Shown piece after piece: positions 11,195-61,799 of a stretch of DNA of 64,000 nt (position 1 is the first letter of the stretch; each line of letters opens with the position of its first letter). Location of the stretch: positions 66,439,787 through 66,503,786 of the forward strand of contig NC_091121.1 of NCBI RefSeq assembly GCF_040183065.1, given 5' to 3'. The notes under the pieces were generated by a model. The model was given only the letters and a program-made list of their open reading frames with translations, ran no database searches and was not told where the DNA came from. The stretch is from Periplaneta americana. Lineage: Eukaryota; Arthropoda; Insecta; Blattodea; Blattidae. The position numbers were made by a program, and so were the translations under genes.

Positions 11195-11275
11195 TTTTGA
11201 AGGCACCGGGATTTGAACCCGAGTTTTCAGCTCTGTGTGCTGACGCTCTATCCATTAAGCCACACTGGATTCCCA
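11195..11275 (-). repeat. tRNA-like SINE head
   Basis: Minus strand: GTGTGGCTTAATGGATAGAG (A box) and ACTCGGGTTCAAATCCCGG (B box, well-paired T arm). The acceptor arm does not pair, so this is a tRNA-derived retroposon head and not a tRNA gene. Confidence 0.6.
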
Positions 11276-15571: not shown

Positions 15572-16329
15572 ACTTACTTACTGGCTTTTAAGGAACCCGG
15601 AGGTTCATTGCCGCCCTCACATAAGCCTGCCATTGGTCCCTATCCTGAGCAAGATTAATCCATTCTCTATCATCATATCCCACCTCCCTCAAATCCATTT
15701 TAATATTATCTTCCCATCTACGTCTCGGCCTCCCTAAAGGTCTTTTTCCCTCCGGCCTCCCAACTAACACTCTATATGCATTTCTGGATTCGCCCATACA
15801 TGCTACATGCCCAGCCCATCTCAAACGTCTGGATTTAATGTTCCTAATTATGTCAGGTGAAGAATATAATACGTGCAGTTCTGTGTTGTGTAACTTTCTC
15901 CATTCTCCTGTAACTTCATCCCTCTTAGCCCCAAATATTTTCCTGAGAACCTTATTCTCAAACACCCTTAACCTATGTTCCTCTCTCAACATGAGAGTCC
16001 AAGTTTCACAACCATAAAGAACAACCGGTAATATAATTGTTTTATAAATTCTAACTTTCAGATTTTTTGACAGCAGACTGGATGATAAAAGCTTCTCAAC
16101 CGAATAATAACAGGCATTTCCCATATTTATTCTGTGTTTAATTTCCTCCCGAGTATCATTTATATTTGTTACTGTTGCTCCAAGATATTTGAACTTCTCC
16201 ACCTCTTCGAAAGATAAATTTCCAATGTTTATATTGCCATTTCGCACAATATTCCCGTCATGAGACATAATCATATACTTTGTCTTTTCAGGATTTATTT
16301 CCAAACCTATTTCTTTACTTGCTTCCAGT
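15572..16329 (-). mobile_element. 5'-truncated non-LTR retrotransposon (LINE-1 here), RT C-terminus open
   Basis: Carries the end of a reverse transcriptase, which copies the element's own RNA into a nicked genomic site. About 245 codons are open from the right edge to a stop at 15588. Motifs in order: EIGLEINPEKTKYMIMS, FKYLGATVTN, a thumb-like LYGCETWTL block, RLRWAGHVACMGE, GKRPLGRPRRRWED and WINLAQDRDQWQ. The catalytic YADD region lies upstream and is missing, so the copy is dead on arrival. After the stop comes a (TAAG)n tail at 15572-15585. The flanking repeats are TTATTCGTCTT at 15561-15571 and 16330-16340. The lack of stops points to a recent insertion. The style is RTE- or CR1-like; the clade is not settled. 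A decayed relative is at 48577-48800. Confidence 0.85.
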
Positions 16330-16483
16330 TTATTCGTCTTACAGTGCATAATATTGTTAGGAAGTTTGGAGAGACTGGAACATGTTTTGATCCAGAAAAC
16401 CGTTTATGGTATTATAATGTAGAACGTTTTTTAAATAAAGCTGTATACTGTATATTATTTTCAATATTAATGTAATAACAACT

Positions 16484-32206: not shown

Positions 32207-32456
32207 ATTATTGACTTGCACTCGTGCGTGGGTTCGATTCCCGCTTGAGTTGATTACCTGGTTGGGATCTTTCCGAGATTTTCCCCAGTCGGTGAGGCGA
32301 ATGTCAAGGTAATCTATGTCGAATCCTCGGCCTCTTCTCGCCAAATACCATCTCGCTATCATCAGTATCTCGTCAAATACCATCTCGCTATCATCAGTTC
32401 CATCGACGCTAAATAATCTAGTAGTTGATACAGCGTCGTTAAATAACCAACTAAAA
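32207..32456 (+). mobile_element. SINE family C in an (ATT)n tract, with an internal 32-base duplication
   Basis: 5'-truncated: it begins at the B box (GGGTTCGATTCCCGC) and runs to the tail TTGATACAGCGTCGTTAAAT. The block TCTCGCCAAATACCATCTCG...CAGTA occurs twice in tandem. ATT repeats lie on both sides (32172-32212 and 32457-32564). Confidence 0.8.
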
Positions 32457-32501
32457 TTATTATTATTGTTATTGTTATTATTATTATTATTATTATTAAT
32501 C

Positions 32502-32564
<63 letters not shown>
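32457..32564 (+). repeat. (ATT)n microsatellite, about 108 bases
   Basis: Nearly perfect. The long poly-Asn and poly-Leu frames here are products of the repeat. Confidence 0.95.
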
Positions 32565-40477: not shown

Positions 40478-41105
40478 AATGTATATTTTACCATGAAGTC
40501 TTTTGATCAAAACGATTGTATAAATGTATATTTTTGATTACACTACAGTTGATTTAATACTTCTCCAATAATTAGTCACACGTTTTATGCCAATAACGGC
40601 AAGAGATTTAGTTTGCGTTTGGTTATTAATTTTGGATTTCCTTTCCTTAGAAATATTTTGTGGTTCATTGAAGTTTAAAGATAACTGAATTCGCCAGCAG
40701 TGAGTTGTAAAAACATAAATGACAAAAGAATATCAGGAATATGGCCAGATTGTTGCTGATCGGTTTCATCTTCATCCCCCTTCAACCCCCCGAAACATGT
40801 GACGCTTAAGAGATTCAAACTTCCCTGTTGACAGGTAGTAATTCATGAACAGACCCTATTAACATAGCTGTGAAAGAATTAGCCACGCAGAGGACAAACT
40901 TTGGACATATTTTTTCACACCTCTTTTCCCCCTTTCTATTTTTATAGGCTGAACAGTCCTCTATGGCCAATACATGGAGTAAATGTTTAAAAAAATGTAG
41001 AATGGTGAATATAAACATTTAAGTAATTTTTGGACGACATTTAATTTATTTTCCGTCATATTTACAAGTTTTTACGACATATTTTGGTATTTTTAAGGCA
41101 TAAGT
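40475..41105. other. Unassigned sequence left of the CysE-like fragment
   Basis: AT-rich. I looked for an upstream continuation of the CysE reading frame and did not find one. Confidence 0.4.
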
Positions 41106-41111
41106 GCATGC

Positions 41112-41285
41112 ATATTTCCAGAGTATGTAGGTCATAGTAAAGCTGGAGTAGACATTCATGCTTCTGCAGAAATAGGAAAAGCTTTTGTGATAGATCATGG
41201 AACAGGAATAGTGATAGGATCTAGTACGAAAATAGGAAATAAAGTAAAAATATATCAAGGAGTAACTTAAGGAGCTGTTTATGTA
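41112..41285 (+). pseudogene. cysE: Bacterial-type serine O-acetyltransferase (CysE) fragment, probable lateral transfer
   Basis: Serine acetyltransferase makes O-acetylserine from serine and acetyl-CoA, the first step of bacterial and plant cysteine synthesis. Animals normally lack it. One frame over about 58 codons reads [49 protein letters not shown], a stop, then GAVYV. This is the left-handed beta-helix hexapeptide core. The Asp at 41151-41153 and the His at 41196-41198 are 15 residues apart, the spacing of the catalytic pair in the family. The only visible break is TAA at 41268-41270 where Leu is expected (VTLGA). Both ends are truncated. The AT-rich codons would fit a reduced Bacteroidota genome such as a cockroach endosymbiont, but the donor is inferred. 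Confidence 0.75.
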
Positions 41286-41324
41286 TGTGGTGGAATGATG
41301 GAAGAAATAGCGGAAGTATCTAGA

Positions 41325-41475
41325 AGCTGCTCCAACGCCGTTTTTCTCCACCAGAAATTCAGAAATTTGCCTTGGACTCCTCGGGATTTAAACTCGTGTC
41401 TCCAGCTTAGAAAGCCAACGCGGCTCCGCGAGTGATCCGAGCCTACCACAAGCGCTTCGCACGTCACGGAGTTTG
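41325..41475 (-). repeat. tRNA-like SINE head next to the CysE fragment
   Basis: Minus strand: ATCACTCGCGGAGCCGCG (A-box region), GGCTTTCTAAGCTGG, then ACGAGTTTAAATCCCGAGG (B box). The body continues toward 41300. The single copy is not classified. Confidence 0.45.
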
Positions 41476-41480
41476 AGCCC

Positions 41481-41945
41481 GTGGCTAGGGCTGGGTTGGG
41501 GTGGGTCTGGACGCACTGTGATCTCGAAATGACGGCAAGATGGCGTTCGGGTGTCGAACCCGGTTACGAGGCGTGGTGCGTGGCTGCGCACCGTGATCGA
41601 TCGCGCGAGGCTCGCCGCGGACGTTCGGGCGGGCCGGCGGCTAGCTCAGTGGGTCCCCGGGTTTTGTAGCGCTCTGGTACGCTGCAGCAGGTAGGTCCCG
41701 TCCGTGTGCTGATGAGCGATGACAGCTTGCTGCGATGTATTGTGTCGTGGTGTATCGGCTGGACCGGTAAGAATTGTTTCGTGACGCCATTTTGTTTCAA
41801 GATGGCGTTTAAATGCGGCTAGCATGTTTACACTTGAAATAAATTTTTACGTGCTCGCCATGTCCAAGGCTTAATTTAAATGCATGTACTCTTATTTGTC
41901 TAAAATTTGATTTGCCGCCATCTTGTTTCAATATGGCGGATGTTT
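41481..41945 (+). promoter_or_regulatory. CpG-rich island with YY1-type motifs and a splice donor
   Basis: Strongly GC- and CpG-rich (for example CGATCGCGCGAGGCTCGCCG) in an AT-rich window. CAAGATGGCG occurs at 41536 and 41798, its complement CGCCATCTTG at 41916, and near-matches at about 41785 and 41930. This is the YY1/pleiohomeotic-type site, often found just downstream of transcription starts. GCTGCAGCAG followed by GTAGGT at 41691 is a good donor. Together these suggest a 5' non-coding exon and promoter of an unidentified plus-strand gene. Confidence 0.4.
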
Positions 41946-42063
41946 GTGCTTTTGTGTGGCGGTGTTGTTTGTCATTCCAGTACAGAAAAATCTTTTTGTA
42001 AAAGGTATTTTGATTTTACATAATTTTTGGTGTTTGGCGTCCGGTACCCAGATGAATGACAAT

Positions 42064-42096
<33 letters not shown>

Positions 42097-42412
42097 GAGG
42101 TCCAGATTTCGACTGTAGACTTGTGTAGTATTTACCTTCGTATCAGTTCTGGATATTCTAATTAAAATTGTAGCGATAGCATTTTTCTTTTACACATTCA
42201 TTATTCGGAACTGCACCGCAGAAGAGAGTATGAATTTCCATTGTAATCGAGCTGTAATGTGTTACAGTACAGTACAGTACGTACAGTATAATTACGTTTT
42301 GCTGTCGACAATTAAAATGATTAATAAGCATTTTCTATTGTCACGAAAGAGGTTATAACGATTAATGAATTGATCGAAGTTTGTACAAACAAAATGATGG
42401 GTTATCGACTTT
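41946..42412. other. Unassigned; poly-T tract
   Basis: A T run of about 29 bases at 42067-42095 and (GTACA)-like short repeats near 42265. Confidence 0.4.
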
Positions 42413-60045: not shown

Positions 60046-60185
60046 TATTTATTTTTTTTCTTTTTATTCAGTATGCTCCATTGCAGTAATGCAATACTAC
60101 ACACATTTGTTGCTACACTATTTTTACATTCTGTATGAACTTTAAAACTAATAGTAAACTATTTGTAACAGTAGTAGTGCTTTGA

Positions 60186-60548
60186 CTATTTACAATATTT
60201 ACAAGGATGTAACGTCAGCTGACTGAATAGAGTTTATGAATTACTTATAATTATATTAACATATGTGACTTGAATACTAATACTAATCTTAACCAGAGTA
60301 GTATTTTCACTATTTACAATAATCACCCTGCTGTAAAGTCTATTGACTGAATAAAGTTAATGAATTCCTTATAATTATTTTATCAGATCTGACTTGAATA
60401 CTAATATTAGTAGAATACTAATACTAATTTTAACTAGAGCAGTATTTTCACTATTTACAATAATTACAGTGTTGTGAAGCCTATTGAGTGAATAAAGTTT
60501 ATGAATTGCTTATAATTATTATTTTAACATGTCTGACTTGAATACTGA
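60186..60548 (+). repeat. Three tandem units of 124-141 bases
   Basis: Units start CTATTTACAAT at 60186, 60310 and 60451. Shared blocks: GACTGAATARAGTTTATGAA, TTATAATTAT, GACTTGAATACTAATA, AGCAGTATTTTCA. The array is bracketed by ATT microsatellites. Confidence 0.75.
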
Positions 60549-60574
60549 CATTATTATTATTATTATTATTATTA

Positions 60575-60664
<90 letters not shown>
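60549..60664 (+). repeat. (ATT)n microsatellite, about 116 bases
   Basis: Nearly perfect, two GTT interruptions. Confidence 0.95.
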
Positions 60665-61499: not shown

Positions 61500-61799
61500 T
61501 ATCGGACAGTGCGTTTCTTTCATCTACCACCATATGGTAATACCTGAATGACATGGTTACGTTTCTCTATGCGACATCACAGAAACGTAACCATGTCAAT
61601 CAGGTACTATCATCGTGTGGTAGATGAAAGAAACTCACTGGACAGTGCGTTTCTTTCATCTACCACCATATGGTAATACCTGAATGACATGGTTACGTTT
61701 CTCTATGCGACATCACAGAAACGTAACCATGTCAATCAGGTACTATCATCGTGTGGTAGATGAAAGAAACTCACTGTCCGATACTACCCGACTCTCCCC
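61467..61799. mobile_element. Hairpin MITE with an exact 136-base internal tandem duplication
   Basis: Ends GGGGAGAGTCGGGTAGTATC and its inverse, with TA at 61465-61466 and 61800-61801. Inside, 61504-61639 and 61640-61775 are identical as far as I can compare. Each copy is itself a hairpin (TTTCTTTCATCTACCACC pairing with its inverse). GGGTAGTATCGGAC is also doubled at the left end. Confidence 0.9.

What the first reader, a model, noticed from the sequence alone, without database searches (positions are those of the whole stretch)
41112..41285. Bacterial serine acetyltransferase (CysE) fragment in insect DNA
About 58 codons in one frame match the hexapeptide core of CysE, with the catalytic Asp and His at the family's 15-residue spacing and a single in-frame stop. 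Animals lack this enzyme. The AT-rich codons suit an AT-rich donor, and cockroaches carry the Bacteroidota symbiont Blattabacterium. It lies between an unassigned stretch and a tRNA-derived repeat, so it is not simply contaminating bacterial sequence.
Basis: partly seen in the sequence, partly recalled or inferred. Interest (0 to 1): 0.85.

Follow-up and report, generated by a model that had tools for sequence, protein, structure and literature searches.

The report
Symbiont gene scrap in cockroach chromosome
A 154-base broken piece of a cysteine-making gene from the cockroach's own inherited bacterium, Blattabacterium, sits in a chromosome of what is very probably the American cockroach; it is dead DNA, but it suggests that symbiont DNA can reach the host germ line.

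Summary
Window 41132-41285 (154 bases, no gaps) is 96.1% identical (148 of 154) to cysE of a Blattabacterium record, G046, whose length equals the published Blatta orientalis symbiont chromosome. The match stops on both sides. On a cysE tree with 48 Blattabacterium strains it falls in a clade with three of them, support 100/99. The host assembly has 3,231,669,367 bases in 91 pieces, as reported for Periplaneta americana PAMFEO1_priV1. The piece covers codons 151-201 of about 277 and carries TTA>TAA: a dead fragment. Two of 71 sites that never vary in 46 strains have changed, which argues against fresh contamination. Most likely a scrap of symbiont DNA was captured during break repair in the germ line; that step is inferred. 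It resembles the two Buchnera pseudogene scraps of the pea aphid. Passages of two papers report finding no such transfer. Copy number and further Blattabacterium pieces in the 3.2 Gb genome stay open: the own-genome search did not complete.

The parts
41132..41285 (+). 154-base nuclear pseudogene fragment of Blattabacterium cysE (codons 151-201 of 277 in strain EUPOLsin numbering), gapless, with sharp ends
   Evidence: 148 of 154 identical to L029/G046; tree clade 100/99; numbering
41268..41270 (+). in-frame TAA where Blattabacterium G046 has TTA (T>A at 41269)
   Evidence: T at 41269 in all 46 Blattabacterium strains compared
41142..41142 (+). A>G change (Thr to Ala) at a base that is invariant in the symbionts compared
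   Evidence: A in all 46 strains compared
41118..41131 (+). doubtful left extension or junction patch resembling the symbiont's next upstream bases with a small length difference
   Evidence: 3.2% of 5000 random window positions do as well; weak and strain-dependent (P 0.01 to 0.32 over five strains)
41286..41372 (.). right flank; no similarity to the symbiont's next codons
   Evidence: RF00005 21.0 bits, below the gathering score of 29, E 0.15

Best explanation
A short piece of the resident Blattabacterium's cysE gene was captured in a nuclear chromosome of the germ line of the Periplaneta lineage, and has since decayed as neutral non-coding DNA. Shown: donor clade, limits, in-frame stop, location inside a gap-free stretch of the assembly. 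Inferred: the route. Blattabacterium lives in fat-body bacteriocytes and is passed through the egg (recalled), so symbiont DNA released near oocyte nuclei could fill a double-strand break through end joining. No direct repeat of 12 bases or more flanks the fragment (shorter target-site duplications were not tested) and no mobile element was seen to carry it, which fits end joining better than transposition. It makes no enzyme: it lacks about 150 codons before and 76 after, and is interrupted.
For: Identity 148 of 154 to G046, next best 92.8% (L030) and 91.6% (L028). The tree of 51 cysE rows groups it with exactly these three strains at 100/99. G046's contig length of 634,449 equals the published Blatta orientalis symbiont chromosome, and that paper's abstract groups this symbiont with those of Periplaneta species, so the donor fits the host lineage. 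Host assembly: 3.23 Gb, 91 scaffolds. The match ends abruptly on both sides. Two of 71 symbiont-invariant sites are changed, one of them to a stop.
Against: No reads, PCR or second assembly were seen. No record of the length of the P. americana symbiont (636,994) is among those held, so the stop is known to be absent from 46 other strains, not from that one. With 153 bases the order inside the four-row clade is weak: the tree sets the fragment beside the pair L029+L030 (bootstrap 93 and 96, but SH-aLRT 46 and 47), not beside L029 alone. Three of the six differences to G046 are third-position changes that occur in other strains and could be symbiont variation, and so could the one at 41277. The own-genome search did not complete (17 tries), so copy number is unknown.
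Confidence: 0.92

Rival explanations
1. Assembly or library chimera: symbiont DNA joined to host DNA during sequencing or assembly, with no such locus in the insect.
For: Symbiont DNA was present in the preparation: the P. americana paper removed 61 high-coverage contigs matching Blattabacterium and 19 more derived from it (passages). The piece is short and single in this window.
Against: Two changes at sites invariant in 46 strains, one a stop in an enzyme gene; this would not count if the P. americana symbiont itself carried them. No N in the window. The assembly was made from HiFi long reads; a chimera would need a 154-base piece with host DNA on both sides in the reads.
Confidence: 0.06
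2. Transfer from another bacterium, such as a gut Bacteroidota or another symbiont.
For: CysE is widespread; the 14 non-Blattabacterium loci match at 61-74% protein identity.
Against: The best-scoring non-Blattabacterium DNA match is 73.1% over 145 bases, against 96.1% over 154; the fragment nests inside one Blattabacterium clade.
Confidence: 0.01
3. The fragment has been taken into use by the host, as a short coding exon or regulatory piece.
For: The frame is open for 57 codons before the stop; only 6 of 154 bases differ from the nearest symbiont.
Against: 51 codons of an enzyme's core interrupted by a stop; one change is Thr to Ala and one creates the stop. High identity is explained by youth.
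Confidence: 0.01

Closest known systems
Buchnera-derived pseudogenes psiDnaE and psiAtpH of the pea aphid (Nikoh et al. 2010, PMC2829048; abstract and passages seen)
   Same: Truncated fragments of genes that the resident obligate symbiont still has; nearest kin is the host's own symbiont lineage; both judged relatively recent by tree; psiAtpH also carries stops.
   Different: Other host order and symbiont phylum (Bacteroidota). 154 bases against about 325 and 300 (from their table coordinates). The aphid cases were checked by quantitative PCR and RT-PCR; this one is sequence only.
Nuclear inserts of Wolbachia DNA (for example PMC3998919 and PMC3849323; titles and abstract starts in a search listing only)
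   Same: Endosymbiont DNA in a host chromosome.
   Different: Wolbachia lives in the germ line and its inserts can be large and many (recalled); Blattabacterium is confined to bacteriocytes and passed on through the egg (recalled), and here one small piece is seen in 64 kb.
Bacterial serine O-acetyltransferase CysE, TIGR01172
   Same: Hexapeptide core with Asp and His 15 residues apart.
   Different: Only codons 151-201 of about 277, with a stop; cannot be a working enzyme.

Membership tests
Nuclear pseudogene of endosymbiont origin | Closest relative is a gene of the host's own symbiont lineage, by tree | tested here: met
   Clade of 4 rows, 100/99, with G046 (Blatta orientalis symbiont by length), L028 and L030 (unnamed); the P. 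americana symbiont itself was not available
Nuclear pseudogene of endosymbiont origin | Host DNA on both sides within one contig | tested here: met
   No firm symbiont match on either side; rest of the window gives only two simple-repeat matches to G046; no N. Contig boundaries of the assembly were not seen
Nuclear pseudogene of endosymbiont origin | Truncated or interrupted relative to the symbiont gene | tested here: met
   51 of 277 codons, TAA inside
Nuclear pseudogene of endosymbiont origin | Junctions confirmed by reads, PCR or copy-number ratio | not testable with these tools
   No reads held
Nuclear pseudogene of endosymbiont origin | Not transcribed | not testable with these tools
   No RNA data held
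CysE, serine O-acetyltransferase (TIGR01172) | Curated whole-protein score of 210.65 bits | tested here: not met
   61.9 bits over profile positions 55-107 of 162: a fragment, not a member enzyme
CysE, serine O-acetyltransferase (TIGR01172) | Asp and His of the active site 15 residues apart | tested here: met
   VDIH to DHGTG in the translation; the role of the residues is recalled

The most novel reading that the evidence does not exclude
This scrap is one of many: the P. americana genome holds a population of young and old Blattabacterium inserts, a running record of DNA leaking from a bacteriocyte-bound symbiont into the germ line over the history of cockroaches, missed because contamination filters and protein-based searches skip short non-coding pieces.
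Probability: 0.35. Interest if true: 0.65.

Novelty: new member of a known kind. Interest (0 to 1): 0.45.

Why it matters
Whether obligate nutritional symbionts pass DNA to host nuclei, as organelles did, is an open question. [quoted passage not shown] americana and Zootermopsis nevadensis (PMC9603385, passage). A dead fragment contradicts neither in letter, but if real it shows that DNA does arrive, so what is missing is use and not delivery. It is also a warning that a short hit of this sort in a cockroach assembly need not be contamination.

Tried and rejected
Chance or an ordinary insect hexapeptide protein: rejected (251 bits against at most 42.8 in 20 simulated windows). Symbiont DNA further out: extension tests against five strains gave at most one base on the right and weak, strain-dependent scores on the left (P 0.01 to 0.32 from 100 shuffles each; five strains tried, so the 0.01 is not strong). 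Other Blattabacterium pieces in the window: four searches cover the whole window against G046; besides cysE there are two matches, E 6.9e-5 at 32450-32514 and E 5.4e-4 at 60557-60620, both in ATT repeats. In each of these calls only 40 of 78 to 103 first-look candidates were scored, and searches were empty with the tool's note that this shows little without a positive control; the cysE hit is such a control for only. The whole window against 274,449 bases of G046 (not holding cysE) gave nothing at E<=0.01. Plasmids as a source: 445 records matched the EUPOLsin protein, all under 60% identity. Host genes: 10 of the 66 open frames of 85 codons or more listed were scanned against Pfam; one gave a weak reverse-transcriptase match (and a weaker Erp_C one), nine gave none; the other 56 were not scanned. 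Repeats: at E<=0.01 nothing in 40600-42400 recurs in the window except a 26-base pair inside that region, so the right flank could not be shown to be a repeat here. Papers: eight searches listed no title or abstract start that reports Blattabacterium DNA in a host nucleus; the listings were capped (for example 20 of 73, 20 of 425), the library is open-licence only, and I opened passages of five papers only (PMC9603385, PMC12774602, PMC6039017, PMC2768785, PMC2829048).

Age (my arithmetic, no call): 2 of 71 invariant sites is 2.8% (Poisson range about 0.3-10%); with a recalled insect neutral rate near 3e-9 per site and year this would be roughly 9 million years, uncertain by a factor of ten.

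Full report
What is there. The + strand frame of the finding encodes the hexapeptide core of CysE, with a TAA 57 codons after the previous stop and the same frame continuing for a few codons after it. The peptide is recognised by the NCBI cysE model at E 7.1e-17 and by serine acetyltransferases in the PDB, the best being 3f1x. A first scan of genome contigs found 19 loci, five of them Blattabacterium cuenoti, with the best DNA identity among them 88.8% over 152 bases (strain EUPOLsin).

Which donor. Searching 49 genomes of the genus with the intact 277-residue CysE of strain EUPOLsin gave a match in 49, a long one in 48; the remaining one, G042, gave only short matches, the best of them with stops. 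Its contig length, 605,745, is that of the published Cryptocercus punctulatus symbiont. I held cysE of all 48 and compared DNA: the best is L029 from G046, 96.1% over 154 bases, then L030 at 92.8% and L028 at 91.6%. The best-scoring other bacterium is Flavobacterium, 73.1% over 145 bases; shorter pieces reach 78.9% over 95 bases (L017) and 83.3% over 36 (L016). The symbiont of P. americana, 636,994 bp in that table, is not among the lengths listed. A maximum-likelihood tree of 50 cysE genes (48 Blattabacterium, 2 outgroups) plus the fragment puts the fragment in a clade with L028, L029 and L030 at 100/99. Within it the fragment is drawn beside the pair L029+L030, with bootstrap 93 and 96 but SH-aLRT only 46 and 47, so the order is not resolved. 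L028 and L030 are unnamed.

Which host. The tool places the window at G000:C5:66439787-66503786 in a genome of 3,231,669,367 bases in 91 contigs. PMC12774602 reports P. americana PAMFEO1_priV1 with 3.23 Gb and 91 scaffolds (passages). I take this as the host; it is an identification by numbers, not by name. The fit of a Blatta-like donor to a Periplaneta host is what co-inheritance of symbiont and cockroach predicts (PMC6039017 abstract passage).

Anatomy. The match is gapless from 41132 to 41285 and then stops. In EUPOLsin numbering it begins at codon 151 of 277. On the right, none of five strains extends by more than one base. On the left, a short patch at 41118-41131 resembles the symbiont's upstream bases with a three-base difference in length; 3.2% of 5000 random window positions score as well, so it may be a junction trace or nothing. 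The G+C of 41133-41284 is 0.336, that of five symbiont cysE segments 0.30-0.35. A tRNA-like stretch lies 87 bases beyond the right edge on the other strand, below Rfam's threshold. No direct repeat of 12 bases or more flanks the fragment. The window has no N.

Decay. Against G046 there are six differences in 153 bases (two first, one second, three third codon positions). Among 46 strains, 71 of the 153 sites never vary; two of these are changed in the window: 41142 A>G (Thr to Ala) and 41269 T>A (Leu to stop). The change at 41277 is shared with two strains and may be inherited. So few changes came after the transfer, but they are of the sort an enzyme gene would not be expected to keep.

How it most likely got there. 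Shown: symbiont sequence, non-symbiont flanks, truncation, decay. Inferred: a short DNA scrap from lysed symbionts was joined into a chromosomal break in the germ line. The absence of any mobile element seen to carry it, the arbitrary ends inside a gene, and the small size fit end joining. The nearest precedent is the pea aphid, with two truncated Buchnera pseudogenes and no working gene transferred from Buchnera (PMC2829048, abstract and passages).

What weakens this. No reads were seen, the P. americana symbiont's own gene was not available, and the search of the host genome for further copies or other symbiont pieces did not complete. The rest of the window holds no other symbiont piece by the searches made, apart from two weak simple-repeat matches. 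The rival to keep in mind is a chimera with contaminating symbiont DNA, which was present in that project before filtering; the two changes at invariant sites speak against it but would not if the P. americana symbiont carried them.

Verdict. Very probably real, well explained, of a known kind. It appears new for Blattabacterium within the eight literature searches made, whose listings were capped and which cover an open-licence library only. Interest is moderate by itself and higher if a genome-wide search finds more.

Noticed in passing
61504-61776: Two tandem copies of a 136-base unit with 100% match; a very recent duplication or an assembly duplicate.
   Followed up: no
60173-60436: About two copies of a 124-base unit at roughly 80% identity.
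   Followed up: no
11203-11265: tRNA-like sequence on the minus strand at 34.2 bits in Rfam but not called by ARAGORN; probably a tRNA-derived SINE.
   Followed up: no
15591-16403: Long minus-strand open frame with a weak reverse-transcriptase match (E 0.0092, below the curated cut-off); probably a non-LTR retroelement remnant.
   Followed up: partly
41782-41938: Two 26-base motifs (88% alike) containing CGCCAT and ATGGCG, 131 bases apart, also readable as an inverted repeat.
   Followed up: no
L070 (G042:C2:254900-256400): The genome whose length equals the Cryptocercus punctulatus symbiont has only short cysE-like matches with stops here, so cysE has probably been lost in that symbiont.
   Followed up: no
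L054 (G006:C1:262163-262987): Blattabacterium cysE match with one TAA inside the aligned range; the cause was not looked into.
   Followed up: no
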